The notes beneath the pieces are model-generated. The model had not been told where the DNA came from. It searched no databases and worked only from the letters and a program-made list of their open reading frames with translations. A stretch of DNA of 36,214 bases from a virus. The position numbers and the translations under genes were made by a program. The stretch lies in the IMG/VR virus record IMGVR_UViG_3300020118_000379, positions 1 through 36,214 of that record. One strand, 5' to 3'. This document shows positions 1-35,676 of the stretch, one piece after another (position 1 is the stretch's first letter; each line of letters starts with the position of its first letter).

Positions 1-672
1 GCGCTTCTTCTCGAGCGCGAAGGTGAAGTCGATCGCTTGCTGGCGCTCCTCGTCCGTCGTGGTAATGCCCGACGCGGCCATCTGGCCGTAGACGGACTTC
101 AAGCGCGCGATCCCGCGCTCCTTCGGGATCTCCATCGCGTCCTTCACGGCGTGGAACTGTGCCGAGACGAAGTCCCCGACGATCGGAACCTTCCCGATCG
201 TGTTGTCGACGAGGCTCGTGAGCCCGCCCGTGATCGCGTTGTCCGCGAGGACCGTCGCGGAGGAGGCCGAGGCGCCTTGCGTGTTCCGAATGCCCTGCCC
301 AGCCCCCTTGAGGAACTCCTGCCCGGCCGACGCGAGCATCCCCATCGGGCCGCCCGCGGTCCCCATGAAGTCCCCCGCGCCCGCGCTTCCTCCGAACATG
401 GCCGCGCCGCTGCGCCCGAGTTCGTCCACCGGGTTCTTGCGAAGCCCCGCGAGCATCCCGAGTCCCGTGCCTTCGAGCGTGCCCGACGCCGCCGGGCTTC
501 CTCCGCCAGGCTGGTTCCCCGAAGGCCCCCCGACTCCCGGCCCCGCGGCGCCCCGCATCGCACCCGCGAACCGCTGCGAGGCTCGCTGGGCGAGCTGATC
601 GAAGCGCCTGTCAAGCTCGTCAAAGAACCCCTGGGGGATCTCGATCGGGAGGACGATGCGCTCTTCAGACAT
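1..672 (-). CDS. Probable tail tape-measure protein, N-terminal part (runs off the window)
   Basis: Open reading frame of 224 codons with no stop before the left edge, so only the N-terminus is present. It starts MSEERIVLPIEIPQGFFDEL and continues with a helix-prone stretch (residues 15-40), a Gly/Ala/Pro-rich region (40-130) and a mixed region ending in FTFALEKKR. The ATG overlaps the previous stop by eight bases. Position at the end of the tail gene run, after a tube-like protein, and the Gly/Ala-rich helical composition fit a tape measure, but no diagnostic domain is visible. A minor tail protein is the alternative. Coding frame is confident; function is inferred from position. Confidence 0.6.
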   Translation of the reverse strand, partial: MSEERIVLPIEIPQGFFDELDRRFDQLAQRASQRFAGAMRGAAGPGVGGPSGNQPGGGSPAASGTLEGTGLGMLAGLRKNPVDELGRSGAAMFGGSAGAGDFMGTAGGPMGMLASAGQEFLKGAGQGIRNTQGASASSATVLADNAITGGLTSLVDNTIGKVPIVGDFVSAQFHAVKDAMEIPKERGIARLKSVYGQMAASGITTTDEERQQAIDFTFALEKKR

Positions 673-937
673 CGCCGCCCTCTTGCCCCGTCACGACGAG
701 AAGGGCGTTCACCCGTCCGTCACGACGCGATACCTCGACTCGATGCCCCGACGCGATCCACGCCCGGACGACCGAGAGCCCGTAGAAGATCACGCCCCAC
801 AAGTCGAAGCGCACGACGTCCGGCAAGAGTTCCTCGCCGCGCCGCCTCCGCTCCGCGCACCAGCGGAGCAGCGCCGCCTCGTCCCCGGGGTCGGCCGAGA
901 GGGCTCTCTCCAGCGAGCGTCTGCGCTCCTCGGCCAT
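665..937 (-). CDS. Hypothetical protein, 90 aa
   Basis: Small protein with an Arg/Glu-rich N-terminal half (MAEERRRSLERALSADPGDE, resembling a short helical repeat with a DPxD turn) and a hydrophobic centre (FDLWGVIFYGLSVVRAWI, residues 44-61) followed by a basic beta-like tail. It ends eight bases inside the tape-measure candidate. No Shine-Dalgarno sequence precedes the ATG; instead a shared promoter-like element sits 33 nt upstream, so this is probably the first gene of a leaderless transcript. Family not recognised. Confidence 0.6.
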   Translation of the reverse strand: MAEERRRSLERALSADPGDEAALLRWCAERRRRGEELLPDVVRFDLWGVIFYGLSVVRAWIASGHRVEVSRRDGRVNALLVVTGQEGGDV

Positions 938-944
938 GAGGAGC

Positions 945-989
945 AGGTTAGACGCGGCCGCGCGACCTAAATACGGCGGCAGGGGTCGC
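945..989 (-). promoter_or_regulatory. Promoter-like element, copy B (leaderless late promoter candidate)
   Basis: The minus strand carries GCGACCCCTGCCGCCGTATT (989 to 970), identical over 20 bases to an element before the portal gene at 25923. A TAACCT box lies at 950-945, eight to thirteen bases before the ATG at 937. No ribosome site is present between. The spacing is the same in two other places, so a promoter whose transcript begins at or near the start codon is the simplest reading. This copy also has GCGACC/GGTCGC inverted arms around the core. Confidence 0.55.
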
Positions 990-2410: not shown

Positions 2411-2988
2411 GCGACCAGACTCAAGTCCTGTAGCTTCGCCATTCTGATGTCGACCCCCGTCGTGGGGTCCATGCCGGCGTAGACGACGAGCGCGCTCTCT
2501 CGCGTCTTATCGATGCTTCTTTCGAGCTCGAGCTTGGGCGTCGAGCACCAGAGGGGATACGCCAGGAGGCAGCTCTCGTTCTCGGGATCGTCCGCGGCGT
2601 GAAGGAGCGGCCCCGACGCCACGACGATCCCGGGCGCGAGGGACGTCTGACCCGCGCGCGAGGCCGTGAGGATGTTCGCCCCCACGTAGCCGTTCGGGCT
2701 CGTCGTCGAGCTCGCCCAGACGAGTCCCTCCACGTCCGGGTCGTACTGGACCATGATGATGGCGATCCCGACCGCGACGCCTCCGCGGTACGCCCCGATC
2801 TTGTCGCGCCCGTGCGCCTCGGAGTCGCGGAAGGCGACGCGCTCCTCCTTCCAGACGTGCACGGCCCGCTTGATCCCGAGCTCCTTCCCGCCGTACGGCG
2901 CGGCGCCGGCCGCCATGCCGGCCGTCGTGACGCCGAGGTAGAGCTTGCCGGGGAGCGAGAGGACGAGGGAGGGATCAGCGGCGCTCAC
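2407..2988 (-). CDS. Probable major tail (tube) protein, 193 aa
   Basis: GTG start overlapping the previous stop by four bases. Starts MSAADPSLVLSLPGKLYLGV and is beta-rich throughout with alternating hydrophobics, e.g. GVAVGIAIIMVQYDPDVEG near residues 70-88 and LVVYAGMDPTTGVDIRMAKL near the C-terminus. Size and position (after connector proteins, before a small helical protein and the tape-measure candidate) match a siphovirus tail tube subunit. No specific family signature is certain, so function rests mainly on synteny. Confidence 0.5.
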   Translation of the reverse strand: MSAADPSLVLSLPGKLYLGVTTAGMAAGAAPYGGKELGIKRAVHVWKEERVAFRDSEAHGRDKIGAYRGGVAVGIAIIMVQYDPDVEGLVWASSTTSPNGYVGANILTASRAGQTSLAPGIVVASGPLLHAADDPENESCLLAYPLWCSTPKLELERSIDKTRESALVVYAGMDPTTGVDIRMAKLQDLSLVA

Positions 2989-3614
2989 GGCGCGGGCGAG
3001 GACGCAGCCGCGGCGCGCGCGGCGAGTGCCGCCTCGTGCTTCTCGGCGAACGTGGGCTCTTGCTCGTCGTGGGCGTCGTGCGCGTCGACGAACGCCTTCG
3101 CGAGCGCGAGGTCAGGTGTGAGGTCCGGGCCGGACGGGTTCCCGCGCGTCGGGGGAGGGATGGGGCCGATCTTCTCGGCCGCCGCGCGCAGGTCGGCGAT
3201 GTTCGTGACGTCCTTCCCGAGAAGGGCGTTGATCTTCTCCGCCGCCCCGAGGCCTTCCTGGATGATCTCCTGGCGCGAGGGCGCCGTCGCGGGCGTCGAG
3301 GCGGGAGGAACGGGGAGCGCCTTCGCCTCGCCGAGCGCCGGCGCAGGCTTGACCTTGTACTTGGGCTCGCCCGGCCAGAGGAGCGTGTAGAGCCCGTCGG
3401 GCCCCTGGTCGAACCGCGCCCCCTCGGGGATCTCCTCGATGCCGAACTCGAGCCCGAACGCGACGCAGACCGCGGTCATCCGCGACTTCTGCTCCGCTCG
3501 GATCTCGTTGATCTGCCGCTGGAGCTCCTCCGCGTCCTCGTCCAGGAGGTCGCTCGCTCGCTTCGAGCTCTCCACGAGGAGCGACTGCATCTTGTTCAGC
3601 CGGAAGACCGCCAC
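2985..3614 (-). CDS. Hypothetical protein with N-terminal coiled coil, 209 aa
   Basis: GTG start chosen because AGAGG lies 6-8 nt upstream; the extra residues before it look non-coding. Residues 10-45 form a strongly charged helix (LLDEDAEELQRQINEIRAEQ) likely to be a coiled coil, followed by a small folded segment around GLEFGIEEIPEGARFDQGPD, then a Pro/Ala-rich linker (PPASTPATAPS) and an Ala-rich C-terminus. It overlaps the next gene by four bases. First gene of the tail sub-operon after the plus-strand island; function unknown, perhaps a tail or connector accessory protein. Confidence 0.6.
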   Translation of the reverse strand: MAVFRLNKMQSLLVESSKRASDLLDEDAEELQRQINEIRAEQKSRMTAVCVAFGLEFGIEEIPEGARFDQGPDGLYTLLWPGEPKYKVKPAPALGEAKALPVPPASTPATAPSRQEIIQEGLGAAEKINALLGKDVTNIADLRAAAEKIGPIPPPTRGNPSGPDLTPDLALAKAFVDAHDAHDEQEPTFAEKHEAALAARAAAASSPAP

Positions 3615-5084: not shown

Positions 5085-5624
5085 ATGGCGAAACCCCGCA
5101 TCGGAAGCCACTACTCGCGCGACGTGCGCGGCGCGAAGAACCCAAACCATCGTCACGGCTCGCACGGGACACCGCTCTATGCCCTGTGGCTGAGGATCAA
5201 GAGCCGGTGCTTCAATGCGCGAGAGCCGGGCTGGAAGAACTACGGTGGCCGAGGCATTCGCCTCGCCTCGGAGTGGACAAACGACTTCGTCGCCTTCCGC
5301 GACTGGATCCTCGCGAACCTCGGGCCGTGCCCTGCTGCCTCCTCGCTCGACCGGATCGACAACGATGGGAACTACGAGCCCGGGAACCTCCGCTGGGCCG
5401 ACCATTCGACCCAGATGAGGAACACTCGCGTTACCCGGCTCATCACACATCCGGTTACCGGCGAGACTAAGCCCATCGGCGAATGGGCAGACATGACGGG
5501 CCTCAAAACGGCCACGATCGAGAATCGGATCTCCCGTCTCGGATGGTCGATCACCGAAGCCCTAGCAACGCCTGCTCGCGACTGGGGACGCCCGTCTACA
5601 AGGGCTCGGCGATCGTCCCGTTGA
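5085..5624 (+). CDS. HNH-type endonuclease, probable free-standing homing gene
   Basis: ATG at 5085 with GGGAG about 9 nt upstream; 179 aa. The core reads LYALWLRIKSRCFNAREPGW, then GGRGIRL, WTNDFVAFRDWI, LDRIDNDGNYEPGNLRWAD. The last segment (D-R-I-D-N-D-G-x-Y-E-P-x-N-L-R-W) is a signature of a phage HNH-like nuclease family, where the conserved acidic and Asn residues form a beta-beta-alpha metal site. The C-terminus has a repeat-like DNA-contact region (HPVTGETKPIGEWADMTG). Clearly homologous to the gene at 7331. It lies opposite the structural genes and overlaps the 3' end of the tail gene by 29 bases, the usual placement of a homing gene beside a conserved structural gene. Confidence 0.75.
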   Translation: MAKPRIGSHYSRDVRGAKNPNHRHGSHGTPLYALWLRIKSRCFNAREPGWKNYGGRGIRLASEWTNDFVAFRDWILANLGPCPAASSLDRIDNDGNYEPGNLRWADHSTQMRNTRVTRLITHPVTGETKPIGEWADMTGLKTATIENRISRLGWSITEALATPARDWGRPSTRARRSSR

Positions 5625-7330: not shown

Positions 7331-7966
7331 ATGTTCATGGTGATAGTCGGCTCTAAGCACGGCTTGCGAACGGTGGTAGAGATCCTTCGCCAGGGCGGTA
7401 GCGTTCGCGTCCGGTGCGCGTGCGGTCGGGAGTCCGTCGTCCAGACAAGCCGGCTCCTTGGCGGGCGCGCCTTGTCCTGCGGGAAGTGCCAAGCTGCCAC
7501 GGCAACCCACGGATCTCTGCGCGGGCTCGGAACGAATGCGCGGCCCTACCTCTACTGCGTCTGGATCGGCATCAAGCAACGGTGCGTCACGGGAAGCGGC
7601 CGCGCTTGGAGGTGGTACGGAGCCCGTGGGATCAAGTTGCACGATCCGTGGATCTCGGACTTCGCGACCTTCCGCGACTGGATCGACTCCAACCTCGGCC
7701 CGAGACCGAGCAAGAAACATTCGCTCGATCGCATCGACTCCGACGGGCACTACGAGCCCGGTAATCTTCGCTGGTCTTCGACGAAGGTTCAGGCGACGAA
7801 CAGGCGAAGCACCGTCTGGCTTACTCACCCCACGACCGGCGAGACGCTGTGCTGTTCCGATTGGGCTCGCCGAGTGGGGATCTGTAAGCAGGTTTTCCGC
7901 TGGCGCCTCGCTCACTGGCCGCTCGAGCGCGTCCTGACGACTCCCAACACGAAGCCGAAGGGCTGA
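7331..7966 (+). CDS. HNH-type endonuclease with N-terminal zinc ribbon, probable homing gene
   Basis: 211 aa from 7331, or 209 from the second ATG at 7337. An N-terminal zinc ribbon (VRCACGRESVVQ ... LSCGKCQ, residues about 27-57) is followed by the same core as the gene at 5085: YCVWIGIKQRCVTG, WYGARGIKLHDPWISDF, FRDWIDSNLG, SLDRIDSDGHYEPGNLRW, and a C-terminal region with LTHPTTGETLCCSDWARRVG. The two proteins are clear paralogues; this one has gained or kept the zinc ribbon. It lies opposite the structural operon between two tail-connector genes and ends seven bases from the facing gene, as expected for a homing endonuclease. Confidence 0.75.
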   Translation: MFMVIVGSKHGLRTVVEILRQGGSVRVRCACGRESVVQTSRLLGGRALSCGKCQAATATHGSLRGLGTNARPYLYCVWIGIKQRCVTGSGRAWRWYGARGIKLHDPWISDFATFRDWIDSNLGPRPSKKHSLDRIDSDGHYEPGNLRWSSTKVQATNRRSTVWLTHPTTGETLCCSDWARRVGICKQVFRWRLAHWPLERVLTTPNTKPKG

Positions 7967-10420: not shown

Positions 10421-10444
10421 CGTGGGCTCCTTCGTCGATCCGGA

Positions 10445-10518
10445 TGGCGGTGGCAGGATTCGCACCTGCGATCTCGAGCTTATGAGGCTCGCGAGGACGT
10501 CTGCTCCTCTACACCGCG
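10445..10518 (-). tRNA. tRNA-Met (anticodon CAT), initiator-like C1:C72
   Basis: A full 74-nt cloverleaf folds on the minus strand: acceptor CGCGGTG with CACCGCC (six pairs, position 1 C opposite 72 C), linker TA, D stem GAGG/CCTC, anticodon stem CGAGC/GCTCG around loop CTCATAA (anticodon CAT), variable AGATC, T stem GCAGG/CCTGC with loop TGCGAAT, discriminator A. CCA is not encoded (TCC follows). The unpaired 1:72 position is a hallmark of bacterial initiator tRNA, but the three G-C anticodon-stem pairs of initiators are absent. The D loop lacks the GG pair and position 55 is G, so it is atypical. It sits between the capsid gene and the next minus-strand gene. Confidence 0.75.
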
Positions 10519-10551
10519 ACGAGCGACCGGGCGCGACCCCGGTCGCCTATT

Positions 10552-11538
10552 TCACTGGATACCGACCCACTGAATCGGAAGCGAGAGCGCCACGGCGCCG
10601 CGCATGCGCACGTAGAGCTTCCGCACGTCCCACTCGCGGGTGATGTCGCTGTTCCCCGACTCGGCGAGCACCTCCGTCGGCGCGACCCGGTCGAGCCAGA
10701 ACGGCCCCTTCGTCGGGGTGTTCATAGCGCCGATCGCCCAGTTGTTGTTCGTGATCCTGGGGTTCGGCAGCGGCATGACCTTGAGGTCGGAGTCGATGAT
10801 GATGTTCGACGGCGCCGCGTTCCCCGAGAGCGCGACGATGAAGAGCTGCGAGATCGCCGACTTGAAGTTCAGGTAGTTGCCGCTGTTGAAGACGACCGCG
10901 ACCTCTCGCTGGATGTCCCCGGGGTTCCAGTACGGCTGGCCCTGCGTGTTCTGGTAGGAGGCGATCCTCGAGAGACCGTTCATCAGGTCCTGGATGATCG
11001 CCGCGGGGCTCGCGACGCCCGACGTGTCCTGGATGTTCCCGTTCGAGACGTTGAAGCGGTTCAGCCCGTTGCCGTCGAGCTTCGAGAACCAGCCCACGCC
11101 GTCCGGGGCGAGCGGGAGGACGGGCTGCATCTGGACGGCGTCGCTCGTCGTTCCGCCCGTGAAGAGCCAGTAGAAGTGGCGCTCCTTGAGCATCGCGAAC
11201 GAGACCGCGCTCTCGAGGACGCGCGACATGATCATCTTCGACTGGTCGTCCTCGACGGCGACCTGCGAGATCTCGACGCCGACGCCGAACTTCCACGACC
11301 TCTGGAGGAAGAGGTTCGTCAGCATCCCGTCGGTCGGGATCGCCGAACCCTCCGCCCAGTACCGAGCGACGGGCGCGGCCTGCGCGTAGCCGAAGGCTTC
11401 GCTGGCCATGTCGCTCGGCACCGAGAGGTTCATGATCTTCGCGAGGCGACCGTCGACGGTTCGCTCGTTCGCGCGGTACGTGTCCCAGAAGTCGATCCTC
11501 AACTTCGGGAAGAACAGCGCGGTGGCCTGGACTCTCAT
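10552..11538 (-). CDS. Major capsid protein (Mu gpT-like)
   Basis: 328 aa; ATG with GGAGGAG about 9 nt upstream. Features of Mu-like major head subunits: N-terminal FFPKLRIDFWDTYRANERTV, then VPSDMASEAFGYAQAAPVAR with a conserved Tyr/aromatic segment, a beta region (SWKFGVGVEISQVAVEDDQS) and a long central domain, ending VRKLYVRMRGAVALSLPIQW. The length is near that of gpT (about 305 aa). Placement after protease/scaffold and decoration protein is the Mu-like order. HK97-fold coat protein forming the head shell. Confidence 0.8.
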   Translation of the reverse strand: MRVQATALFFPKLRIDFWDTYRANERTVDGRLAKIMNLSVPSDMASEAFGYAQAAPVARYWAEGSAIPTDGMLTNLFLQRSWKFGVGVEISQVAVEDDQSKMIMSRVLESAVSFAMLKERHFYWLFTGGTTSDAVQMQPVLPLAPDGVGWFSKLDGNGLNRFNVSNGNIQDTSGVASPAAIIQDLMNGLSRIASYQNTQGQPYWNPGDIQREVAVVFNSGNYLNFKSAISQLFIVALSGNAAPSNIIIDSDLKVMPLPNPRITNNNWAIGAMNTPTKGPFWLDRVAPTEVLAESGNSDITREWDVRKLYVRMRGAVALSLPIQWVGIQ

Positions 11539-11541
11539 GGG

Positions 11542-12102
11542 CTAGCTCCTCCGGGCTTCGAGCGAGTAGACGAGGACGTGATAGATCGCGGTGGTCCCCG
11601 AGGGCTTGCTCAGGAACTCCTTGATCTCGCCGATCACCGGGTCGGATCCCGGCTGGACGGACGTGAGGTCCGCGGGGTTGCTCGTCGAGGCGTAGAGCGC
11701 GATCCCCACGTCCGCTCCCGAGCCCGCCATCGAGCCCGTGAGGGTCAGGGTGACCTGCTCGAGGACGAACTCCCCCGTGTTGACGATCGCCCGGTTGGCG
11801 TTCCCCGCCGCGGCGCTCGACACGTTCCCCTTCGCGATCGTGGGGATCGGGAGCGTCCCGAGGGCGAACCCGTCCATGACGGGGTTCGATCCCGGGACGC
11901 CCGGCCCGACGATGATCCCGACGCAGGGGGTCGTCTTGCCGCCGCCCGAGGCCATCTTGACGAGCTGGCCCGACGAGAGCTTGCCGAGCATCCCGACGTA
12001 GAGCTGGAGCCCGTCCTGGATGATGTACGGGATCTCCTCGCGGAGCAGCGCTCCGCCCGAGCTCTTGAGGCCCGACGGGTTGTCGTAGGTGAGATCAGCC
12101 AC
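11542..12102 (-). CDS. Probable head decoration protein, 186 aa
   Basis: GTG start overlapping the protease/scaffold stop by eight bases. Small beta-rich protein (LQLYVGMLGKLSSGQLVKMA near residue 32, AIVNTGEFVLEQVTLTLTGS near 105), Gly/Ser/Thr-rich with few charged residues. Genes of this size and composition between protease and major capsid gene usually encode a capsid-stabilising decoration protein; the GIIVGPGV-type segment recalls DUF2190-like proteins. Function by position and composition. Confidence 0.6.
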   Translation of the reverse strand: MADLTYDNPSGLKSSGGALLREEIPYIIQDGLQLYVGMLGKLSSGQLVKMASGGGKTTPCVGIIVGPGVPGSNPVMDGFALGTLPIPTIAKGNVSSAAAGNANRAIVNTGEFVLEQVTLTLTGSMAGSGADVGIALYASTSNPADLTSVQPGSDPVIGEIKEFLSKPSGTTAIYHVLVYSLEARRS

Positions 12103-13786
12103 GGATCACCTCCCCCTGGCGCGCCCCCGCGTTGATCGACGGCTCGCCCCGGCAGAGGTCGTAGAACGTCGAGTTGCCGAGCGACCGCCGGATGTGCTCG
12201 GGCTGCCCCATGTAATCCGCGTAGAACGCCTCCACGCGGCGCTTCGCCTCGGGACGGTTCCCGAAGGTCTCGAGGGCCTTCTTGAGGCTCTCCTGTTCGG
12301 GCGTCACGAGCCCCGGGGCGGTCGCCTGGCCCGGGAGACCCTGGAAGGTCTCGGGCCCGCGCGAGGCCCCGAGACCCATCCCGATCTTGACCTGACGGAC
12401 GAACTCGTCGACCGTCGCCTTCCCGCCCTTGACCGCGGCCTTGTAGACCTCGGCCTCGAAGAGCTCGGAGACGGAGGCCGCGCCGGAGTCGAGGAGCGCC
12501 TTCTTGGCCTCCGCGACGAGCCCGACCGCGTCCCGCTCGCGGTTGAGCTTCTCGACCGCGCCGCGCAGCCCGAGGATCGTCTGCTCCTGGACGGCGAGGC
12601 GCTGCGAGAAGATCTCGGGGATGCCCGGGGCCGGAGCCGTGGCCGTGGCCTTCGGGGCGGTCCCGTTCTTCGCGGGCGCGCTCCCCGCCGCGACTCGAGC
12701 CGCCGCCTCGGCGAAGGTCTTGGCGGAGAAGAACTCGCCCGGGGTCATCTCCGAGACCGCGGGAGGGAGGCCGTCGTTGACGGGCGCGCGCGACTGCGCC
12801 GTCTCGGCTTCCTTCTTCTTCTCCTCGGGCTCAGCCTCGGCCGCTTCGCCGCCAGGCCCCTTGTCGTCGTCGTCGTCGCTCTTCTCGCCCTTGCCCTCGT
12901 ACTTGGACATCAGGGTCTCGAAGCGCTTCCCCATCACCTCGAAGAACTTGGAAGCCATCGCCTCCATGCGCTCCTCGGGACTCGGCGCCTTCTTTTCGTC
13001 CTGCTGGTCGGCCACGCCGCCCTCCTTTTTGCCCTCGGGTCGGGCCGCGAACGACTCGCTACCCTCTCGCTGGATCGCCTTCACGACGTTGTCGTACTGC
13101 GCCCGGTCGATCAGCCCCTTGGTGAGCATCGCGTTCGCGACCGCGTACGGGCTTCGGGCGGAGGCCGCCTCGAAGACCTCGGGGGCGCCGCGCCAGAGCT
13201 GAGGGTGCTCCGCGATCTGAGCGGCGAACGCCTCGCCGGCGAACGCCTCGGCGAGCTCGGGAGTCGTCTCGCGCACGAGCTTCTCGTAGAGCCCCGGGTA
13301 GGGGTTCATCGGCTCCTTGTCCTTGAGGAGCGCGAGCGCCTGGAGCTCTTCGGGGTGGTCGGGCGAGATCTCCGGCGAGCGGTAGAGGTACTTGTCGGCG
13401 GCGGCGAACGACTGGACGTCGTCGTACACCTTGTTGCCGAACAGGGTCCAGCGCGGGGGCTCGTCGGGGTTCACCTCGGCGAGTTCGAGCCGTCCGTTGA
13501 GCTCGTACTCCCCGACGCGCATCGGGTTGTCGAACTGGTGCCGGAGCGTCATCAGGGGCTTCTTGCCCATCTTGGCGCGCGCCTGGTGGAGCGAGAGAGC
13601 GCGCTCGAGCCACGCCTTCGACCGGACCTCGCGCGCTCCCTGCACGGCCGCCGGGTCCTGAGCGCGGACCTCTGAGAACACGGGCACGTTTTCTACGACG
13701 ACCCGTCCATCGGCCAGCACGCGCGCCGGGATACTTCCCGAGGCGAGACGGGTTCCGAAGACCTCAACCTTCCAAGTGGGGGGCAC
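12095..13786 (-). CDS. Mu-like head maturation protease/scaffold fusion, 563 aa
   Basis: N-terminal 250 residues resemble Mu protein I-like proteases: KKPLMTLRHQFDNPMRVGEY with a conserved His, WTLFGNKVYDDV and KYLYRSPEIS. The middle (270-345) is extremely charged (RMEAMASKFFEVMGKRFETL, then Asp and Glu runs), followed by Pro/Ala linkers and a long helical C-terminus, typical of a scaffold that is cleaved during head maturation. The GTG at 13786 is chosen over a TTG nine bases upstream because the shared promoter-like element lies exactly 33 nt before it, as at 937 and 25923. No ribosome site. Heads the capsid operon. Confidence 0.7.
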   Translation of the reverse strand: MPPTWKVEVFGTRLASGSIPARVLADGRVVVENVPVFSEVRAQDPAAVQGAREVRSKAWLERALSLHQARAKMGKKPLMTLRHQFDNPMRVGEYELNGRLELAEVNPDEPPRWTLFGNKVYDDVQSFAAADKYLYRSPEISPDHPEELQALALLKDKEPMNPYPGLYEKLVRETTPELAEAFAGEAFAAQIAEHPQLWRGAPEVFEAASARSPYAVANAMLTKGLIDRAQYDNVVKAIQREGSESFAARPEGKKEGGVADQQDEKKAPSPEERMEAMASKFFEVMGKRFETLMSKYEGKGEKSDDDDDKGPGGEAAEAEPEEKKKEAETAQSRAPVNDGLPPAVSEMTPGEFFSAKTFAEAAARVAAGSAPAKNGTAPKATATAPAPGIPEIFSQRLAVQEQTILGLRGAVEKLNRERDAVGLVAEAKKALLDSGAASVSELFEAEVYKAAVKGGKATVDEFVRQVKIGMGLGASRGPETFQGLPGQATAPGLVTPEQESLKKALETFGNRPEAKRRVEAFYADYMGQPEHIRRSLGNSTFYDLCRGEPSINAGARQGEVIRG

Positions 13787-13793
13787 GCGCCAC

Positions 13794-13828
13794 AACGTAG
13801 AGGGGACCGTCCGGACACAAAACGGCGG
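13794..13828 (-). promoter_or_regulatory. Promoter-like element, copy C (capsid operon)
   Basis: Minus strand CCGCCGTTTT (13828 to 13819) matches the core CCGCCGTATT of copies A and B, and TACGTT (13799 to 13794) takes the place of their -10-like box. Both lie at exactly the same distances from the start codon at 13786 as in the other two copies. Only the core is conserved here, not the full 20 bases. The rest of the 107-bp divergent gap carries the ribosome site and a possible TACGCT -10 box (about 13860) for the plus-strand operon. Confidence 0.5.
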
Positions 13829-13893: not shown

Positions 13894-14313
13894 TTGAGGA
13901 AAGGTCGAAGGCCGAAGTGTCTCGAGTTCGAGCCGCAGAGTTCAGTCAAGAAGACGTTCAAGGTGCCGGACAGCGTGGCGGTGGAGTTCTCTTGGCGCGT
14001 CAAGGCCGCGCTCGCGCGCGATCCCCACGCGTCGCGGAACGACCTCTTCCGCCAGATGCTCCTCGAGTACGCCGAGCGTCACCCGCTCGCGGGCCGGCCC
14101 CCGACCGCCTCCTCCGCCTGGCCCGATCCCGGCGACGAACGCTTCACGCGTCTCGAGGTGAGGATCCCCGCGAGTATGCTCGCCGACGCCGAGCAGCGCG
14201 TGCTCCGGGCGCGAGACGTCGACCCGTGCTTCATCATGACCGACCACATCCGGCGCGTCATCTTCGACTACTTCAAGCGCCACCCCTTCGAGAAGAACGG
14301 GGCGAAGCCGTGA
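13894..14313 (+). CDS. Tandem ribbon-helix-helix-like protein, 139 aa
   Basis: TTG start with AGGAG 7 nt upstream. The protein looks like two copies of one ribbon-helix-helix unit: residues about 25-68 (FKVPDSVAVEFSWRV ... LLEYAERHPL) and about 87-133 (LEVRIPASMLADAEQRV ... IFDYFKRHPF). Each has a short strand, two helices and the same ending, with a Pro/Ala linker between. RHH proteins normally dimerise to bind DNA; two in one chain would give a built-in dimer. As first gene of the 13-gene plus-strand operon and facing the capsid operon promoter, it is a good candidate for a local regulator. The RHH call is by pattern, without a search. Confidence 0.6.
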   Translation: MRKGRRPKCLEFEPQSSVKKTFKVPDSVAVEFSWRVKAALARDPHASRNDLFRQMLLEYAERHPLAGRPPTASSAWPDPGDERFTRLEVRIPASMLADAEQRVLRARDVDPCFIMTDHIRRVIFDYFKRHPFEKNGAKP

Positions 14314-16129: not shown

Positions 16130-16431
16130 GCGACCGCACGATCAAGGTCCGGATGCCGGTCCTCGTGACCTCCCACGGGAACTGGGCGACGAGCATGGAC
16201 TGGACGACGCCCGACTACCGCGCCAAGGCGAGCCCGCCTCTGATGCTCGACTCCGATGTGAACCGCCTCTCACGGCTCTCGGGCATCCGTTTCTGCGACG
16301 AGGACTCTGTCCCGCAGAGCCGCCACGTCGTATGGGTCGAGGCGGAGATCCCGATTCCCGATGCGCCTCTCCCGGTCGGGCCCGTCCCGGGCATCGCGGG
16401 CGAGGTCGTCAAGGTGGAGGAGAAGTCATGA
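16126..16431 (+). CDS. Hypothetical protein, 101 aa
   Basis: ATG in an ATGA overlap. Beta-rich N-terminal part (MSDRTIKVRMPVLVTSHGNW), aromatic and Asp-rich middle (ATSMDWTTPDYRAKAS), then VWVEAEIPIPDAPLPVGPVP and an acidic tail. Soluble protein of unknown function directly upstream of the GroES homologue. Confidence 0.55.
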   Translation: MSDRTIKVRMPVLVTSHGNWATSMDWTTPDYRAKASPPLMLDSDVNRLSRLSGIRFCDEDSVPQSRHVVWVEAEIPIPDAPLPVGPVPGIAGEVVKVEEKS

Positions 16432-16769
16432 GCGCGCGCGCTGCGAAGGAACAGAAGATCCCCGGGGGGTTCGCCCCCGTGGACGACCGCGTCCTGGTCG
16501 AGCCGTTCGACCCGGACTCCGTCACGACGGGCGGGATCGTCATCCCGGCGACCGCCCAGGAGAAGTCGCTGCGTGGCCGCGTCCTGGCGGTCGGCCCGGG
16601 GAGGCTCCTCGACACGGGCGAGCGCGTCCCGATGAACGTAGCCGTGGGGGACTCGGTTCTCTACGGGAAGCACTCCGGCCTCGAGGTCGAGCTCGACGGC
16701 GCCAAGTACCAGATCATGCGCGCGACGGACCTCCTCATGGTCTACGTCGAGGAGAAGGGGAAGAAGTGA
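16428..16769 (+). CDS. GroES-like co-chaperonin (Cpn10)
   Basis: ATG in an ATGA overlap; 113 aa, against about 97 for E. coli GroES, the extra length being an N-terminal extension. Features: PVDDRVLVEPFDPDSVTTGG, the mobile loop with GGIVIP (GGIVLP type) that docks on GroEL, then RGRVLAVGPGRLLDTGERVP, VAVGDSVLYGKHSGLEVELD and a final strand YQIMRATDLLMVYVEE. GroES forms a heptameric lid on GroEL. Phage copies (T4 gp31 being the classic) replace the host lid for capsid protein folding, and this one is in an operon opposite the capsid genes. Confidence 0.9.
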   Translation: MSARAAKEQKIPGGFAPVDDRVLVEPFDPDSVTTGGIVIPATAQEKSLRGRVLAVGPGRLLDTGERVPMNVAVGDSVLYGKHSGLEVELDGAKYQIMRATDLLMVYVEEKGKK

Positions 16770-17518
16770 GCCAGGACGCGGTCTCGCTCCACGGCGTCTC
16801 CGTCGCGTCGCTCAAGCTCGACTCGGAGGATGTCCTCGTACGCCCCGCCGCCTCGGAGGAGCAGCTCTCGAGCGGGCTCTGGATCATGAACAAGGCGCGC
16901 CTCACGTGGTCGGGCGATTGCTTCTACGGGATCGTAGTCGCGACGGGCCCGGGGCGTCTCGTCCAGCGTCCTCCCACGGCGCACGCGATCCTCGACTTCC
17001 TCTGGGAGCTCGCCGCTTCCGACCGGGACGAGGACGACGACGCGGAGGCCCCGCTCGCCGCGTTCCTCGCGAAGAGCTCGGAGCGCGTCCGCGTCCCATG
17101 CCCCTGGAAAGTCTCGGATCACGTCTGCGTCCGGAAGGGCTTCGGCCCCGAGATCGACCTGCGCGAGGGTCGTCACCACGTCGTCGGGCGCGGCAATTCG
17201 CAGTACGGCCACGGGATCCTCGCCCATTGGGATCCGAAGCACACCCACTGCTGGCACGACTTCGAGCAGGGGCGGAGCCCGTCGCGCGAGGGTCGTCTCG
17301 CGAAGTGCTGCGAGTGCTCCCTCGAAGAGGTCATCCAGGTCCGGCTCCCGACGTGCAACCCGAAGGTCGCGGGGCCGCGCCTCCTCGAGACGCAGCTCGG
17401 CCACAAGGTCTACGAGACGGACCTGGGGCGCGCGGATCCCGTCCCGGAGTACGGCCCGCTCGAAGGGGTCCGCGGAGCGGCGGGAGAGCTCCGGCCCGAG
17501 GAGCACACGGGGGACTGA
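16766..17518 (+). CDS. Diverged GroES-like protein with zinc-binding C-terminal region, 250 aa
   Basis: GTG start in a GTGA overlap with the GroES gene. Residues 16-64 recall the GroES barrel: LDSEDVLVRPAASEEQLSSG, LWIMNKARLTW in place of the mobile loop, and YGIVVATGPGRL. An acidic insert (about 78-95) follows. PWKVSDHVCVRKGFGPEIDL matches the second half of the barrel. The C-terminal part has HWDPKHTHCWHDFE and CCECSLEEVI, a likely metal site not found in GroES. The adjacent intact GroES suggests duplication and divergence. Without structure prediction the GroES fold is an inference. Confidence 0.6.
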   Translation: MSQDAVSLHGVSVASLKLDSEDVLVRPAASEEQLSSGLWIMNKARLTWSGDCFYGIVVATGPGRLVQRPPTAHAILDFLWELAASDRDEDDDAEAPLAAFLAKSSERVRVPCPWKVSDHVCVRKGFGPEIDLREGRHHVVGRGNSQYGHGILAHWDPKHTHCWHDFEQGRSPSREGRLAKCCECSLEEVIQVRLPTCNPKVAGPRLLETQLGHKVYETDLGRADPVPEYGPLEGVRGAAGELRPEEHTGD

Positions 17519-19096: not shown

Positions 19097-20035
19097 TCAG
19101 CCCTGACGCCCCTGGCGGTCGGGTCGATGCCCAAAGCCCGGAGCGGCGCGCGCGGCGTTCGGGACCGAGACGAAGCCCTCTGGGACCTCTGAGCCAACGA
19201 TGGGCGAGAGGCTGCACCGGCATCCGAACCCAAGCGGGGGCGAGAAGCTGTCCCAGACGGGGTCGTCGACGCGCGCGCGGAGCCCGTCGAGCGCGAGATG
19301 GTTCTCCCCGTGGTCCTCGGGTCGCCCTCGCCGGACGTTCGAGTCGCGCGTCGCCATGTAGACGAACCCGACGGGGATCCCCGCCGCGGCGACTCGCTCG
19401 CCCTCGACGAAGCGCCCCGCCGTCGTCGCGGTCGCGACCGCCGCGCGCGTGACCGTCGAGGCGTAACTCTTCGGCCAGTCCCAGGTACTCGAGAGGTCAG
19501 CGACGATCGCCGGCGTCGAGTGCCCCTCGGCCATCCCCTGCGCGATCCTGTCCCGGACGCGCGTCGCCACCTCCTCGTCGAGCGCACGGGCGGCAGAAAA
19601 GCTGTGCGGATAGAACAGCTCGCCGCTCGGTTCCCGGAAGGGAGCGTACGCGTCCTCCACCGCCAGACCGAACCGCTCGAGCTCCTCCGCGCCGAAGGGG
19701 TCGCGCGACTGGAGATCCTGGATCGCCTCGACGAACGCCACGCGCGGTACGATCTCCGGAATCTCGTTCCCGCGCGAGGCGAAGGCCTCCGCCTCGATGG
19801 GCGCGCCTCGGTCGGGGAAGCGGACGTCGAGCCGGCCCGAGAGGTCGGCGAGCGCGCCGAGCATCGAGAGCGCCCGGGAGAGCTCGCGCGTGACGGCGTC
19901 CGTTCGCTCGAGCGGGCCCGTCCCGGTGAGCTGCCGCGCGTGGATCCCCGCGAGCGCCGCGAGGCACCGCTCGACCTCGCGCGCGGAGGAGCGCGCCTCG
20001 CGCTTCAAGACCGCCTGGAGGCGGGAGACGCTCAC
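19097..20035 (-). CDS. Phage head morphogenesis protein (MuF / SPP1 gp7-like)
   Basis: 312 aa; ATG overlaps the previous stop by four bases. Helical N-terminus, then the C-terminal MuF signature: ASTVTRAAVATATTAGRFVE, FVYMATRDSNVRRGRPEDHG with conserved Arg/Asp and His, HLALDGLRARVDDPVWD, and the closing Cys motif SPPLGFGCRCSLSPI. These proteins are minor head components next to the portal. The order portal, exported genes, MuF, capsid genes fits Mu-like phages apart from the inserted exported genes. Confidence 0.85.
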   Translation of the reverse strand: MSVSRLQAVLKREARSSAREVERCLAALAGIHARQLTGTGPLERTDAVTRELSRALSMLGALADLSGRLDVRFPDRGAPIEAEAFASRGNEIPEIVPRVAFVEAIQDLQSRDPFGAEELERFGLAVEDAYAPFREPSGELFYPHSFSAARALDEEVATRVRDRIAQGMAEGHSTPAIVADLSSTWDWPKSYASTVTRAAVATATTAGRFVEGERVAAAGIPVGFVYMATRDSNVRRGRPEDHGENHLALDGLRARVDDPVWDSFSPPLGFGCRCSLSPIVGSEVPEGFVSVPNAARAAPGFGHRPDRQGRQG

Positions 20036-24354: not shown

Positions 24355-25923
24355 TCAGGCCGCCACGCCGTTCTTCTCCGCGACGCTGCTCTTCCCCTCG
24401 CCGATCGGACGCCTGGCATCGAAGCCGTCGTTCCTGAGGATGTCCTTGAGGGGATCGGGCGGCTGGCTCCCCGGGACGATCCCGGCGGCCGCCGCCGCGT
24501 CGTAGTCGATAACTTGGTCGCCCTCGTTCGGCGCGGTGAGCTCGAAGGCCTCGCGGAACTCCTCGACCTTGACCGGGACGCGGAGATCGCGCGCGAGCTT
24601 GAAGACCTCGATCATCTGCGCGGGGTCGCGCTGCTGCTTCCCCTTGAGCGAGAGACGCGGCTCGGGGATTCCCCAGAGGCCGAGCTCCTTGAGGTTGTCC
24701 TCGTTGTGCTCGATGAGGAAGCGCACGTAGGTGCGGGTCCACGACTCCTCGAGGGGCTGGCGCAGGTAGAGGATGCGGGAGTCGAGCGAGCCCTCCTCGA
24801 CCTTCGCGCTCGAGAAGCCCCCGGTCTTGTCGCTCCCGCCCGTCGGCTGGAGCGCCGCGAGGATCCGCTTCACGAGCTCGCGGTCGAGGTACTCGATCCA
24901 CGCGAGGACGTTCGCCGCGGCGGTCGCGGGCATGTCGAGGAGCTTGACCTCCGTGAGGTCGTCCGTCGCCGCGAGGTTCTCCGAGCGGTACTTCCGGAGC
25001 GCATCGATCGTCGACTGGAGAGCGGTCGCCTGCCCCGCGCCCTTCGCGAAGCCGTCGCGGAGCGCCTTCGTCTGCGCCCAGAGGAAGCCCTGGCCCCACC
25101 GCTCGAGTCCCTGGAGGCCGAACTGGATCACGCGGGTCTTCGCCCACGCGTAGAACTGGAGTTCGTCCGCGAGCGCGTAGCCGTACGACATCCCCCACTC
25201 GGAGGTGTCGACGACGTGCTGGAGCCAGCGGTCGAGGGGCGCGACGGAGTCGAGGGGCTGCCAGAAGAACGAGGTCTGCGAGGGCTGGACCCCGCCGCCT
25301 CGATGCATCTCCCAGCGGAAGTTCCCGAGGGCGCCCGCGTCGTACCCCGCGACGTTCGACACGTCCTGCGTCGTCGGGGCGTCGCGCTCGGCGCGCGTGT
25401 AGACGCGCGGGTCGTTCTGACCGAGCGGCTTCTCCTCGCCGGGCGTCGCCTTTCCCTGGCTGGAGAGTACCTGAGCCTGGGTGAGGCGGAAGCGCCGCTT
25501 GTCGACGTCCCGGACCTTCCCGATGACGGTCCACTCGCGCTCTTTCCCGTCGCCGAGCTTGAGCCTCTGACGCTCGGGGTAGGCGAGCCCCCACGAGGCT
25601 CCGCGGTGAGACGCGCGCGCCATGTTGTACCAGCATTGCGAGCGGTAGCGCTGCCGCCTCGTCAGCCCGTGGATGACCCCGGCGAGGTCGCGGCTCTGCT
25701 TATCGCTCTCGTCGGGCTCGAAGGAGTACTGGTGCCCGACGATCGACCGGCACAGGACGTCGACCGCGCCGCCGATGACGAGGTCCCTGATTTGCTTCTC
25801 AGCACTCTCAGGGTCGGCGTTTAGAGAGAAGCTCGGATCCCAGAGGACGAATTGCTGGAGAGCGGACGCGATGGAAGTAGCGTATGCGTTCTGGTTCGCG
25901 CTTGAGCTGAGCGGGAGGGGCAC
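24355..25923 (-). CDS. Portal protein (DUF935, Mu gp29-like)
   Basis: 522 aa with GTG start. Portal-like features: N-terminal part with AEKQIRDLVIGGAVDVLCRS and long helices; central FFWQPLDSVAPLDRWLQHVV; the clip/crown region with RKYRSENLAATDDLTEVKLL and AAANVLAWIEYLDRELVKRI, then YVRFLIEHNEDNLKELGLWG. These match DUF935 portals of Mu-like phages, which form the dodecameric DNA channel. No ribosome site precedes the GTG; the promoter-like element is 33 nt upstream. First gene of a probable portal-to-MuF transcript. Confidence 0.85.
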   Translation of the reverse strand: MPLPLSSSANQNAYATSIASALQQFVLWDPSFSLNADPESAEKQIRDLVIGGAVDVLCRSIVGHQYSFEPDESDKQSRDLAGVIHGLTRRQRYRSQCWYNMARASHRGASWGLAYPERQRLKLGDGKEREWTVIGKVRDVDKRRFRLTQAQVLSSQGKATPGEEKPLGQNDPRVYTRAERDAPTTQDVSNVAGYDAGALGNFRWEMHRGGGVQPSQTSFFWQPLDSVAPLDRWLQHVVDTSEWGMSYGYALADELQFYAWAKTRVIQFGLQGLERWGQGFLWAQTKALRDGFAKGAGQATALQSTIDALRKYRSENLAATDDLTEVKLLDMPATAAANVLAWIEYLDRELVKRILAALQPTGGSDKTGGFSSAKVEEGSLDSRILYLRQPLEESWTRTYVRFLIEHNEDNLKELGLWGIPEPRLSLKGKQQRDPAQMIEVFKLARDLRVPVKVEEFREAFELTAPNEGDQVIDYDAAAAAGIVPGSQPPDPLKDILRNDGFDARRPIGEGKSSVAEKNGVAA

Positions 25924-25930
25924 GAGAGAA

Positions 25931-25975
25931 GGGTAAGCGGCGAGCCCCTTATCACAATACGGCGGCAGGGGTCGC
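25931..25975 (-). promoter_or_regulatory. Promoter-like element, copy A (portal operon)
   Basis: Minus strand GCGACCCCTGCCGCCGTATT (25975 to 25956) is identical to the element at 989-970. TTACCC occupies 25936-25931, eight to thirteen bases before the GTG at 25923. No Shine-Dalgarno sequence is present in the interval. It begins at the last base of the upstream gene's stop codon and fills the 51-bp gap to the portal. Confidence 0.55.
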
Positions 25976-26305: not shown

Positions 26306-28615
26306 CTAGCCCCACCCGGGGGGCGCCCGCATCGCCACGCCTTCGGGAAGGTAGAGTTTCTTGGCCGGCTTCCCTTCGCTCGGGAGACCCGCCCCGACTC
26401 CCATCTCCTCCTTAACCACATGCGCCGCCCATCCTAGGCAGTCGACCGCGTCATCGTCATCGCCGTCGGGCTCGAAGTTGTAGAGCTGACGCTCGAAGCC
26501 CGCGAGCCAGTCGGCGTGAGCCGGGACGAGGATGCTGTGACGCTCCCAACGAGCCGCGGCGGGCTGCGCGCGGGACCACTTGTCGCGCGAGCCCGGGACG
26601 ACCGTCCGGAAGCTGATCTTCTCCTCGCGCATGAACGAGAGGAGGTGAGCGGAGACCGCCGACTCCTCGACGAAGGGGTAGGCGTCGTGCTTCGCCGCCA
26701 TCGAGCGGATCTGGCGCATCGCCTCCGGACCCTCGACGCGCTCCAAGAAGAGGTCGAGGAGGAAGAGCATGTCGGAGGAGTGGTGGTAGCCGCACGCGAG
26801 GATCGCCGTGTGGTCCGCGGAGGTCTTCGTCGACGTCGCGGGATCGACGGTGAGGAACTTCACGAGGTCGCTCTCGCGCGCGACGCCGCCCGCCCAGACG
26901 AGCTCGTTGAGCTCCCACCAGTAGGTGCGCGCGTCTCGACGCTTGAAGAGCCCGCCGCCGGGCGCGACGAACTCCGCGAGGTACTCCTGGGCGAACGTCA
27001 ACGCGGTCGACTCGCGCCGCTCGTTCTCGAGGAAGGCGCGCGAGACCTTCGGGTTGTCGCTCGAGGGGCGCTGCCAGCGGGCCCACCCGGGGCGCGTGGG
27101 AGCGGCGTCGAACTCCTTCTTGAACCAGTTCGCCACGCCCTTCGGGGTCGAGATGATGATCGCCCACCCGTCCGTCGCGGCCATCGTGGGCTTGACGACC
27201 TCTTCCCAGACTTTGTCCTTCACGAGCGCCGCCTCGTCGACGATGACGAAGTCGTTGTTGGGGCCTCGCTGCATGTCGGGGTTGTCGCAGGAGCGGATCG
27301 TGATGCCGCCGCCGCCGAGGAGGACGAGACGCCGCCCCTGCTCGTGCTTCTCGACCCAGATGTCCTTCGTCGCGGCCTTGAGGAGATCCCACGCCTCATC
27401 CGCGACGTAGCTCGCCGGGACGTACCACGTGCCGCGCGCGCCGCGTGCTGCTCCCCGGAACTGCTTCTTCGCGCCGTGCCCGTCGACGGCCGGGATGAGG
27501 CACATCGTGGAGTTGTGCGTGGGGATGAACGTCCGGCCCACGAGGAAGAGGTGGGAGGGCGACGCGACCCCGATGCACTTCACGGGGCGCGACGCGACGG
27601 GCGAGATGGACTCGACGCAGCGGAAGTTTTGCCGGGAACTCGAGGGGCTCAACCGCTCGGCCTTACGAGGAAGCCGGAAGACCTGCTCGGTTGGTTTGAA
27701 CTGGACGCGCCAGGAGATCCCGCAATCCTTCCCGTTCACCTTGGCGCGCTTCGTTCGCATGATCGGCTTGAACCCGAGACTCGCCGCGAGCTCGAAGACG
27801 CCCCATGCGAGCTTCGGGTCCATGTTGTCGAAGGCCGCGTGACCCAGCTTCGAGCAAGTCCCGTTGGTGTCCATGAGGCCCGCGAGGAGGCCACGGCGTT
27901 GCTCGATCGAACCCCGGAAGTAGACCGCGGGGATGTGCTTGTTCCCCTTTAGACCGAGTTCGCGGAGTCGCTTCGTGAGCCCGACGATCCTCCACGTCCG
28001 CGCCTTCAAGCTCGGGTAGTGCTGTTCCTCGACCATCCAGCCGGTGGCCGCGATCTGCTCGAAGATGAAGGCGTCGTTCTTCGTGACCATCCCGGCCGCC
28101 GAATGCCCGTCTCCGAGCCACACCCCGAGGAGATACGGGTCGAGCGGGAGATCTACGGCTGGACACTGGATCGGCCCGCACACGCGCACGGCGTGATTCG
28201 CCTCCTCGCGGTAGCGCAGGGAGCGAGACATCTCCTCTGTGGTCACGGTGACGGGCGAGAGGGGAACGTCCTGGCGTTGAAGCGACTTCCGAACGGGCTT
28301 CGTGTAGCTCTCCCAAAGGTGGCCCGCGTCGGCGACTATCACGCTCCCGTCCGTGAATACGACCTCGTAGCACTCGTGCCCGTGCATGACCTCGGAGGCG
28401 AACGTCACGGTGGTCTGGGCTCCCGAGGCATCGAAGACGACGTCGCCGGGCTCGAGCGCCCCCATCGTCGTCCACCCCGAGGGCGTCGGGATGGGGGTCT
28501 CAACGTCTACCGCTTTTCCGAATTTGCGCCCGGCGCAGAGGATCTTGCGCTTCGCGTCGCTCGAGAGGAACTCGATCTGGTGCGGGAGCGGCTGCGGGAG
28601 GAGGACGGTCCCCAC
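26306..28615 (-). CDS. Terminase large subunit, interrupted by an intein
   Basis: GTG start, 769-aa precursor. Removing the 334-aa intein leaves a 435-aa terminase. Walker A is split: GRKFGK (29-34) joins ST (369-370) to rebuild GRKFGKST. Walker B FVIVDEA is at 456-462 and the coupling motif ISTPKG at about 488-493. The C-terminal RNase H-like nuclease has VDPATSTKTSADHTA (Asp591), VEESAVSAHLL (Glu650/651) and DGDDDDAVDC (about 717-726). It cuts and pumps DNA into heads through the portal. ATPase function requires splicing, since the intein sits in the nucleotide-binding loop. Confidence 0.92.
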   Translation of the reverse strand: MGTVLLPQPLPHQIEFLSSDAKRKILCAGRKFGKAVDVETPIPTPSGWTTMGALEPGDVVFDASGAQTTVTFASEVMHGHECYEVVFTDGSVIVADAGHLWESYTKPVRKSLQRQDVPLSPVTVTTEEMSRSLRYREEANHAVRVCGPIQCPAVDLPLDPYLLGVWLGDGHSAAGMVTKNDAFIFEQIAATGWMVEEQHYPSLKARTWRIVGLTKRLRELGLKGNKHIPAVYFRGSIEQRRGLLAGLMDTNGTCSKLGHAAFDNMDPKLAWGVFELAASLGFKPIMRTKRAKVNGKDCGISWRVQFKPTEQVFRLPRKAERLSPSSSRQNFRCVESISPVASRPVKCIGVASPSHLFLVGRTFIPTHNSTMCLIPAVDGHGAKKQFRGAARGARGTWYVPASYVADEAWDLLKAATKDIWVEKHEQGRRLVLLGGGGITIRSCDNPDMQRGPNNDFVIVDEAALVKDKVWEEVVKPTMAATDGWAIIISTPKGVANWFKKEFDAAPTRPGWARWQRPSSDNPKVSRAFLENERRESTALTFAQEYLAEFVAPGGGLFKRRDARTYWWELNELVWAGGVARESDLVKFLTVDPATSTKTSADHTAILACGYHHSSDMLFLLDLFLERVEGPEAMRQIRSMAAKHDAYPFVEESAVSAHLLSFMREEKISFRTVVPGSRDKWSRAQPAAARWERHSILVPAHADWLAGFERQLYNFEPDGDDDDAVDCLGWAAHVVKEEMGVGAGLPSEGKPAKKLYLPEGVAMRAPPGWG
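27512..28513 (-). mobile_element. Class 3 (WCT) intein with LAGLIDADG domain in the terminase Walker A loop
   Basis: 334 codons in frame (precursor residues 35-368) between K34 and S369. Starts with Ala, so it cannot use the usual Cys/Ser1 mechanism. It has the class 3 triad: Trp67 in GHLW (block B), Cys313 in VKCIGVASPSHLF (block F) and Thr332 in FIPTHN (block G), with the terminal HN and Ser at +1. The homing domain has motif 1 LLGVWLGDG (128-136, Asp135) and motif 2 LAGLMDTNG (210-218), where the eighth residue is Asn217 instead of Asp/Glu. Splicing residues are intact; cleavage activity is doubtful. Confidence 0.9.
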
Positions 28616-32398: not shown

Positions 32399-32943
32399 GG
32401 GGACCACTCGAAAGTCTTCTGGACGACGGGAAGCCCGACGATGAAGCCAGGGGATCGCGCCACGACGCATTCAGCGAAGGCGGCGATCTTGAACCACGCG
32501 AACGCAGTCACGCCGTCGCCGTTCACTCGTTCCCCGAGGACTCCCCGCGCTACTCCTTCGCGCCAGCCCGTTGCCTTGAAGATCTCGCGGAACTTGGCAA
32601 GATCCAGGTAGACCCACGGGTCGATCTCGAGTGTTGGACCTGTCGCGTGGCCGTAGAACGCGAAGTCACCGAAGCCCCCTAGGATCTTCTGGAGTTCGGT
32701 GGTTACGCCGCTGGCGCGCCGAAGGCGAAAGGTGAACTCGTCGCGGAAGCGCTTGAACTCTGGCGTCCGCACGCGGCACGCGATCCTGACGTCCACCTTC
32801 CTGAGCTTGAGCACGACGAGATCGGTAGCCTCACGCTGGTCCTCGAAGTCGCCGGCTTCGGTGAGGAGCAGCGGCCCAACGATGCGCTTGATTGCCGGGA
32901 TGAAGCGGTCGGAGAAGACCCGATCCGTTGAGTAGTTCCTCAC
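32395..32943 (-). CDS. Hypothetical phage protein, 182 aa
   Basis: GTG start in a GTGA overlap with the ParB-methyltransferase stop; the five residues upstream are excluded. Reads MRNYSTDRVFSDRFIPAIKR, LTEAGDFEDQREATDLVVLK, IACRVRTPEF with RDEFTFRLRRASGVTTELQK, ILGGFGDFAFYG, and a C-terminal WKI/FKIAAFAECVVARS stretch. The DF...TDLVVL...ACRVR pattern and TELxKI hint at a nuclease-like alpha/beta fold, but that is not secure. I recall this as a recurring phage protein of unknown function. Confidence 0.6.
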   Translation of the reverse strand: MRNYSTDRVFSDRFIPAIKRIVGPLLLTEAGDFEDQREATDLVVLKLRKVDVRIACRVRTPEFKRFRDEFTFRLRRASGVTTELQKILGGFGDFAFYGHATGPTLEIDPWVYLDLAKFREIFKATGWREGVARGVLGERVNGDGVTAFAWFKIAAFAECVVARSPGFIVGLPVVQKTFEWSP

Positions 32944-35463: not shown

Positions 35464-35624
35464 TTCCCCGCCTTGAGCTTGTCGAGGATCGCGAGCCGGA
35501 TCCATGACGAGACCGTCCGTTGCTCCTCGCCGGCAAGACGCCGAACGGTCGCGAGTTCTTCGGGTGTCAACCGGACTCCCGTGCTTGCGCCGCGGTCGCC
35601 GTGCGCCACCTTGGTCTTGGGCAT
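35460..35624 (-). CDS. Ribbon-helix-helix DNA-binding protein, 54 aa
   Basis: The ATG at 35624 has AGGAG 7 nt upstream, so the longer frame before it is not used. MPKTKVAHGDRGASTGVRLT, then PEELATVRRLAGEEQRTVSS and WIRLAILDKLKAGK: a strand, helix, turn (RTVSSWIR) and helix as in CopG/Arc repressors. Likely a small transcriptional regulator of this operon or a DNA-binding accessory of the HNH gene to which it is coupled. Confidence 0.75.
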   Translation of the reverse strand: MPKTKVAHGDRGASTGVRLTPEELATVRRLAGEEQRTVSSWIRLAILDKLKAGK

Positions 35625-35676
35625 CGTTCTACTCCTGGCGCGTAGTTTACCTCTCGCTACCTCTCGCGTCCAGTCG

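What the first reader, a model, noticed from the sequence alone, without database searches (positions are those of the whole stretch)
937..989. Shared element exactly 33 nt before three SD-less start codons: candidate leaderless late promoter
GCGACCCCTGCCGCCGTATT is identical before the genes starting at 937 and 25923, and the core CCGCCGTTTT recurs before 13786. In all three, the A/T end of the core is exactly 33 nt from the start codon, a TAnnnT-like box (TAACCT, TTACCC, TACGTT) sits at -13 to -8, and no Shine-Dalgarno sequence exists, although most genes here have one. These are the first genes of the tape-measure, capsid and portal transcripts. This fits a phage-specific promoter with a 19-nt spacer whose transcript starts at the start codon, giving coordinated late expression.
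Basis: partly seen in the sequence, partly recalled or inferred. Interest (0 to 1): 0.75.

Follow-up and report, generated by a model that had tools for sequence, protein, structure and literature searches.

The report
Repeated leaderless phage promoter candidate
An uncultured phage carries the same short DNA box at exactly the same distance in front of three of its particle-building gene blocks, most likely a promoter whose messenger RNA starts right at the start codon, which is a well-supported but fairly ordinary kind of phage gene switch.

Summary
CCGCCGTWTT (up to one mismatch) occurs exactly three times in the window. Each copy ends 32 nt before a start codon (937, 13786, 25923). The 937 and 25923 copies extend to an identical 20-mer. 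All three genes lack a Shine-Dalgarno sequence, and all have TAnnnT 6-7 nt before the start codon. Only one other of 51 called genes has TAnnnT at 5-9 nt. Chance expectations are about 5e-7 (20-mer), 1e-4 (third core) and 4e-7 (three TAnnnT boxes).

Best reading: leaderless promoters used by host sigma-70-type polymerase, with a degenerate -35 slot and a phage-specific, probably activator-binding, box overlapping it. Two corrections: the -35 to -10 spacer is 17-18 nt, not 19, and the box at 25923 is TACCCT at -12. A matrix of the window sites ranks the orthologous start in relative G002 first of 2336. The GC-rich core is not conserved there, and the site is absent at the G001 ortholog and G002 portal. 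A divergently encoded tandem ribbon-helix-helix protein is a speculative regulator. Late timing and coordination are unproven; the 'tape-measure' label is doubtful. New member of a known kind.

The parts
970..989 (-). Box A: 20-mer GCGACCCCTGCCGCCGTATT, core CCGCCGTATT at 970-979, positions -52 to -33 from the start at 937
968..973 (-). A, canonical -35 slot (-36..-31): TATTTA, overlapping the end of the core
   Evidence: sequence; geometry is inference
945..950 (-). A, -10-like TAACCT (-13..-8), 7 nt before ATG
665..937 (-). Gene A, 90 aa, ATG start without SD; overlaps the start of the next ORF (672..1, runs off the contig)
   Evidence: GC3 0.86
25956..25975 (-). Box B: identical 20-mer, core 25956-25965; begins at the last base of the stop codon of the upstream ORF
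25954..25959 (-). B, canonical -35 slot: TATTGT
   Evidence: sequence; geometry is inference
25930..25935 (-). B, -10-like TACCCT (-12..-7), 6 nt before GTG
24355..25923 (-). Portal protein gene, GTG start without SD, first gene of the block running to 19097
   Evidence: PHROG 113, E 8.6e-8
13819..13828 (-). Box C: core CCGCCGTTTT only, same offset from start 13786
13817..13822 (-). C, canonical -35 slot: TTTTGT
   Evidence: sequence; geometry is inference
13794..13799 (-). C, -10-like TACGTT (-13..-8), 7 nt before GTG
12095..13786 (-). First gene of the capsid block (putative head protease/scaffold, no family hit), GTG start without SD; putative major capsid protein follows at 10552-11538
13894..14313 (+). 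Tandem ribbon-helix-helix DNA-binding protein, divergent from box C; speculative regulator of the boxes

Best explanation
The three boxes are phage promoters that make leaderless mRNAs. Host sigma-70-type RNA polymerase recognises a TAnnnT -10 box 6-7 nt upstream and starts transcription at, or within about 1 nt of, the start codon, so no Shine-Dalgarno sequence is needed. The -35 hexamer is degenerate (TATTTA, TATTGT, TTTTGT) but lies at the canonical 17-18-nt spacing. The phage-specific box overlaps and extends upstream of it (-42..-33 in all three, -52..-33 in two) and most likely binds a phage-encoded activator, in the manner of Mu Mor or T4 MotA, so that three structural blocks (portal, capsid, and the unit after 937) are switched on together. 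Shown: box, fixed spacing, TAnnnT boxes, SD absence, one orthologous site. Inferred: promoter activity, leaderlessness, activator and late timing.
For: Exactly three genome-wide copies, all at one offset from starts of structural block heads. TAnnnT at N6/N7 in all three; only 4 of 51 genes have it at N5-9. No SD in any. TAnnnT about 12 bp upstream of a start is the published signature of bacterial leaderless genes (PMC3160421). A matrix of the window sites ranks the orthologous start of G002 (21960) first of 2336 start codons, also when built from sites 937 and 25923 alone; column-shuffled matrices never ranked it first in 300 trials. The relatives have other TAnnnT starts with N6-N8 (G002 35386 N6, G002 22025 N7, G001 7005 N8). 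RNA folding of the three regions shows no common structure. No sigma-70 region 2 domain was found.
Against: The G001 ortholog (ranks about 600-800 of 1063) and the G002 portal (rank about 1800) lack the site. The G002 match keeps TATT and the -10 neighbourhood but not CCGCCG, and its -10 lacks a strict TAnnnT. That TATT is also the complement of a possible -35 of the divergent gene. With the site pair 937+13786 the G002 start ranks only 14th. No transcription data exist and the host is unknown. The activator is a guess.
Confidence: 0.62

Rival explanations
1. The box is a repressor operator, similar in logic to stoperators: a phage regulator, perhaps the tandem ribbon-helix-helix protein, sits over the -35 of three promoters and keeps structural genes off until released.
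For: The box overlaps the -35 slot. A tandem ribbon-helix-helix gene lies divergent to box C. Most proteins of that fold are repressors (own knowledge).
Against: The fixed position relative to the start codon is stricter than an operator needs. No copy lies before the + strand genes other than in the shared C intergenic region. No integrase or lysogeny gene was seen among the scanned genes.
Confidence: 0.17
2. The elements are constitutive sigma-70-type leaderless promoters with no phage factor; the 937/25923 identity is a recent promoter copy and the 13786 core a less similar relative.
For: Canonical -35/-10 spacing. A 20-nt block ending abruptly fits copying. No activator is identified.
Against: CCGCCG lies upstream of the -35 hexamer and would not be kept by sigma-70 contacts alone, yet it is the part shared by all three while spacers have diverged.
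Confidence: 0.15
3. The transcript starts further upstream and the conserved block is part of a 5' leader (RNA element or ribosome-recruiting signal).
For: Fixed distance to the start codon, as in start-associated sequences of cluster K mycobacteriophages (PMC3203893).
Against: No common RNA fold, z-scores -1.5, 0.4 and 1.4; no SD-like part; TAnnnT at the leaderless position would be unexplained.
Confidence: 0.05
4. Chance, or a shared recombination or nuclease target site without a role in expression.
For: A 20-bp direct repeat could be a recombination trace; several homing-type endonucleases are present.
Against: Expected numbers 5e-7 and 1e-4 for the placement; identical offset from starts.
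Confidence: 0.01

Closest known systems
TA-led (leaderless) genes of high-GC bacteria (PMC3160421)
   Same: TAnnnT about 12 bp before the start codon, no Shine-Dalgarno sequence
   Different: Here an extra 10-20-bp box is shared at -52..-33, and leaderlessness is not yet mapped
Leaderless mRNAs of Thermus phages (phiYS40, PMC3594737; P23-45 middle/late promoters of extended -10 class, PMC7403470)
   Same: Phage genes grouped under promoters apparently independent of a good -35; leaderless mRNA is stated for phiYS40
   Different: No extended -10 (TGn) here; a GC-rich box sits at the -35 instead; host unknown
Mu middle promoter with activator Mor (PMC4390567)
   Same: Binding element centred near -43 next to a sigma-70 -10; the 20-mer here is centred at -42.5
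   Different: The Mor site is an inverted repeat, this box is not; no Mor homolog found among genes scanned; site C has only the downstream half
T4 middle promoters with MotA box (PMC2988021)
   Same: A phage-specific box replaces the -35 and works with the host -10
   Different: MotA box is centred at -30 and 12 bp from the -10; here the core is centred near -38 and 19-20 nt from the -10; no MotA/AsiA homolog found among genes scanned
Start-associated sequences of cluster K mycobacteriophages (PMC3203893)
   Same: Conserved box repeated at start codons of selected genes in one phage group
   Different: There the box lies beside the start codon (position from own knowledge) with inverted repeats upstream; here it lies 32 nt away with a -10 in between

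Membership tests
Bacterial leaderless (TA-led) gene | TAnnnT with about 6-7 nt before the start codon | tested here: met
   All three genes; 4 of 51 genes genome-wide at N5-9
Bacterial leaderless (TA-led) gene | No Shine-Dalgarno sequence | tested here: met
Bacterial leaderless (TA-led) gene | Transcript 5' end at the start codon | not testable with these tools
   needs RNA from infected cells
Sigma-70 promoter with consensus -35 | TTGACA-like -35 at 16-18 nt from the -10 | tested here: not met
   Slots read TATTTA, TATTGT, TTTTGT; consensus scan finds no promoter there
Activator-dependent phage promoter (Mor/MotA type) | Specific box at or just upstream of the -35 shared by co-regulated promoters | tested here: met
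   Core at -42..-33 in three promoters; co-regulation itself not tested
Activator-dependent phage promoter (Mor/MotA type) | Phage-encoded activator that binds the box | not testable with these tools
   Only candidates: tandem ribbon-helix-helix protein 13894-14313 and another at 35460-35693
Phage RNA polymerase or sigma-factor promoter | Phage encodes its own RNA polymerase or sigma factor | tested here: inconclusive
   No PF04542 match in three contigs with working controls; PF00940 search had no control response; contigs may be incomplete
Cluster K start-associated sequence | Box immediately adjacent to the start codon | tested here: not met
   Box ends 32 nt upstream

The most novel reading that the evidence does not exclude
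A new phage promoter class in which a single-chain tandem ribbon-helix-helix protein, a fused version of the single-domain regulator of related phages, binds an asymmetric -42..-33 box and activates host polymerase at leaderless structural promoters; fusion of the two domains would explain why the box is asymmetric and absent in relatives with the single-domain protein.
Probability: 0.12. Interest if true: 0.6.

Novelty: new member of a known kind. Interest (0 to 1): 0.36.

Why it matters
If true, it gives a sequence signature for structural-gene promoters in a phage group for which no annotated phage relative was found, and an example of leaderless structural-gene transcription directed by a phage-specific box. 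It also suggests a testable regulator that has been fused in one phage and is single-domain in its relatives.

Tried and rejected
Exact 20-mer in IMG/VR and in 84,980 species genomes: no hit. Relatives by terminase, portal, first capsid-block gene and capsid: only G001 and G002 share the structural genes; L003 and L004 match only part of the terminase at 29%. Capsid and portal against GenBank phages: none. A common RNA structure was rejected. Archaeal TATA box: considered because TATTTA lies near -33 before 937, but SD sequences are common here and the -10 boxes fit bacteria (own judgement). An equivalent in-register repeat inside G001 or G002: longest shared runs 6 and 8 nt, judged to be chance level. 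Sigma factor: none found.

Full report
WHAT THE WINDOW IS. The window is a whole IMG/VR virus record of 36,214 bp, about 68% GC. Its identifiable genes are those of a tailed phage: terminase large subunit and portal, a minor head/morphogenesis-type protein at 19097-20035 and a putative major capsid gene at 10552-11538. Only two records sharing its structural genes were found: G001 (15,291 bp; capsid 76% identical) and G002 (39,779 bp; capsid 68%). The host is unknown.

CCGCCGTWTT with up to one mismatch has three matches, all on the - strand at 970-979, 13819-13828 and 25956-25965. The 20-mer GCGACCCCTGCCGCCGTATT is exact at 970-989 and 25956-25975 only. In each case 32 nt separate the core from the start codon. 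ATG 937 and GTG 25923 are the first starts of their frames. GTG 13786 is preceded by one other possible start, TTG 13795, but the N-terminus of the orthologs fits GTG 13786. All three starts lack an SD, whereas 36 of 51 called genes have at least a 4-nt match. Among 51 genes only four have TAnnnT with 5-9 nt before the start: 937 (N7), 13786 (N7), 25923 (N6) and 30533 (N9). Chance expectations are 5e-7 for the in-register 20-mer, 1e-4 for the third core and 4e-7 for the three TAnnnT boxes. They are post hoc but far from marginal.

CORRECTIONS TO THE GEOMETRY. The 10-mer is better not read as a -35 hexamer 19 nt from the -10. With the start codon as +1, the canonical -35 slot is -36..-31 and reads TATTTA, TATTGT and TTTTGT, 17-18 nt from the -10 boxes. 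The GC-rich half, CCGCCG at -42..-37, and the 20-mer extension to -52 lie upstream of it. A 20-mer centred at -42.5 is where activators that touch sigma region 4 sit (own knowledge); the Mu Mor element is centred at -43.5 (abstract), while T4 MotA boxes are centred at -30.

RELATED PHAGES. The core is not found before homologous genes in G001 or G002. A position matrix of the three window sites (-45 to +3) nevertheless ranks the orthologous start 21960 of G002 first of 2336 start codons on both strands. It stays first when built from 937 and 25923 only, so the match is not just orthology of site C. With the pair 937+13786 it is 14th, and in 300 column-shuffled matrices it was never first. What is shared is TATT at -36..-33 and a pyrimidine-rich CTTnCC neighbourhood of the -10, not CCGCCG, and TAnnnT is imperfect there. 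One caution: on the other strand that TATT is part of TTGGAA-17-TAGGAT-7-ATG, a possible leaderless promoter of the divergent gene. The G001 ortholog and the G002 portal give no signal; the G002 portal instead has TAGACT, a leader and GAGG. TAnnnT starts with N6-N8 exist elsewhere in the relatives (G002 35386 and 22025, G001 7005), so leaderless starts seem to be part of this group's repertoire.

MECHANISM. The best reading is a leaderless promoter read by host RNA polymerase with a degenerate -35 and a phage-specific box that probably binds an activator. TAnnnT about 12 bp before a start is the published mark of leaderless genes in high-GC bacteria. Leaderless phage mRNAs are reported for the Thermus phage phiYS40. 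No sigma-70 region 2 domain was found. The search for a T7-type polymerase was uninformative because its controls did not respond; the only called genes above 600 aa are the 1000-aa fibre-like protein and the intein-bearing terminase, but the contig may be incomplete.

A CANDIDATE REGULATOR. The gene divergent from box C, 13894-14313, encodes two ribbon-helix-helix motifs in one chain. The N half and the C half each align to the single-domain ortholog in both relatives. AlphaFold gives strand-helix-helix twice at moderate confidence (mean pLDDT 70). The top fold matches, weak (best E 0.04), are chains of the F-plasmid relaxosome, which I take to be TraY; TraY is described as a monomer holding the whole ribbon-helix-helix dimer fold. 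A single-chain dimer could read an asymmetric box. This is a lead, not evidence that it binds.

WHAT IS NOT SHOWN. There is no transcript mapping, no timing and no binding. The transcript after 937 was called 'tape-measure'; its second ORF (672..1) matches a complete 226-aa G002 protein, so the label is doubtful. The 13786 gene has no family hit; its role is inferred from position before the capsid gene.

VERDICT. A real, non-random, repeated promoter-like element that is probably leaderless. It is a new member of a known kind, of moderate interest.

Noticed in passing
window 26306-28615 (-): Terminase large subunit gene carries an in-frame intein with a LAGLIDADG homing endonuclease domain (about residues 30-368), similar to stretches annotated in DnaB-like helicases of other phages.
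   Followed up: partly
window 13894-14313 (+): Tandem ribbon-helix-helix protein; relatives G001 and G002 have a single-domain version at the same divergent position.
   Followed up: yes
window 10442-10519 (-); L016 18657-18728 (-): tRNA-Met (CAT) gene inside the structural block just after the putative major capsid gene, at the same place in G002.
   Followed up: partly
window 5283-5396 and 7658-7774: Two pairs of stretches 80-83% alike that appear to encode HNH-type homing endonucleases (+ strand), in gaps between structural genes of the opposite strand.
   Followed up: no
window 16428-16769 and 16766-17518 (+): A GroES-like co-chaperonin (Cpn10, E 1.7e-27) followed by a second, longer protein with a weak Cpn10-like start.
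   Followed up: no
window 32940-34148 (-): Protein with a ParB-like N-terminal part joined to an MT-A70-type methyltransferase.
   Followed up: no
window 2985-3614 (-), upstream of 3614: TTGTCT-17-TAGACT promoter-like pair with a leader and SD, contrasting with the three leaderless sites; GTAGACTCG also occurs twice in G002.
   Followed up: partly
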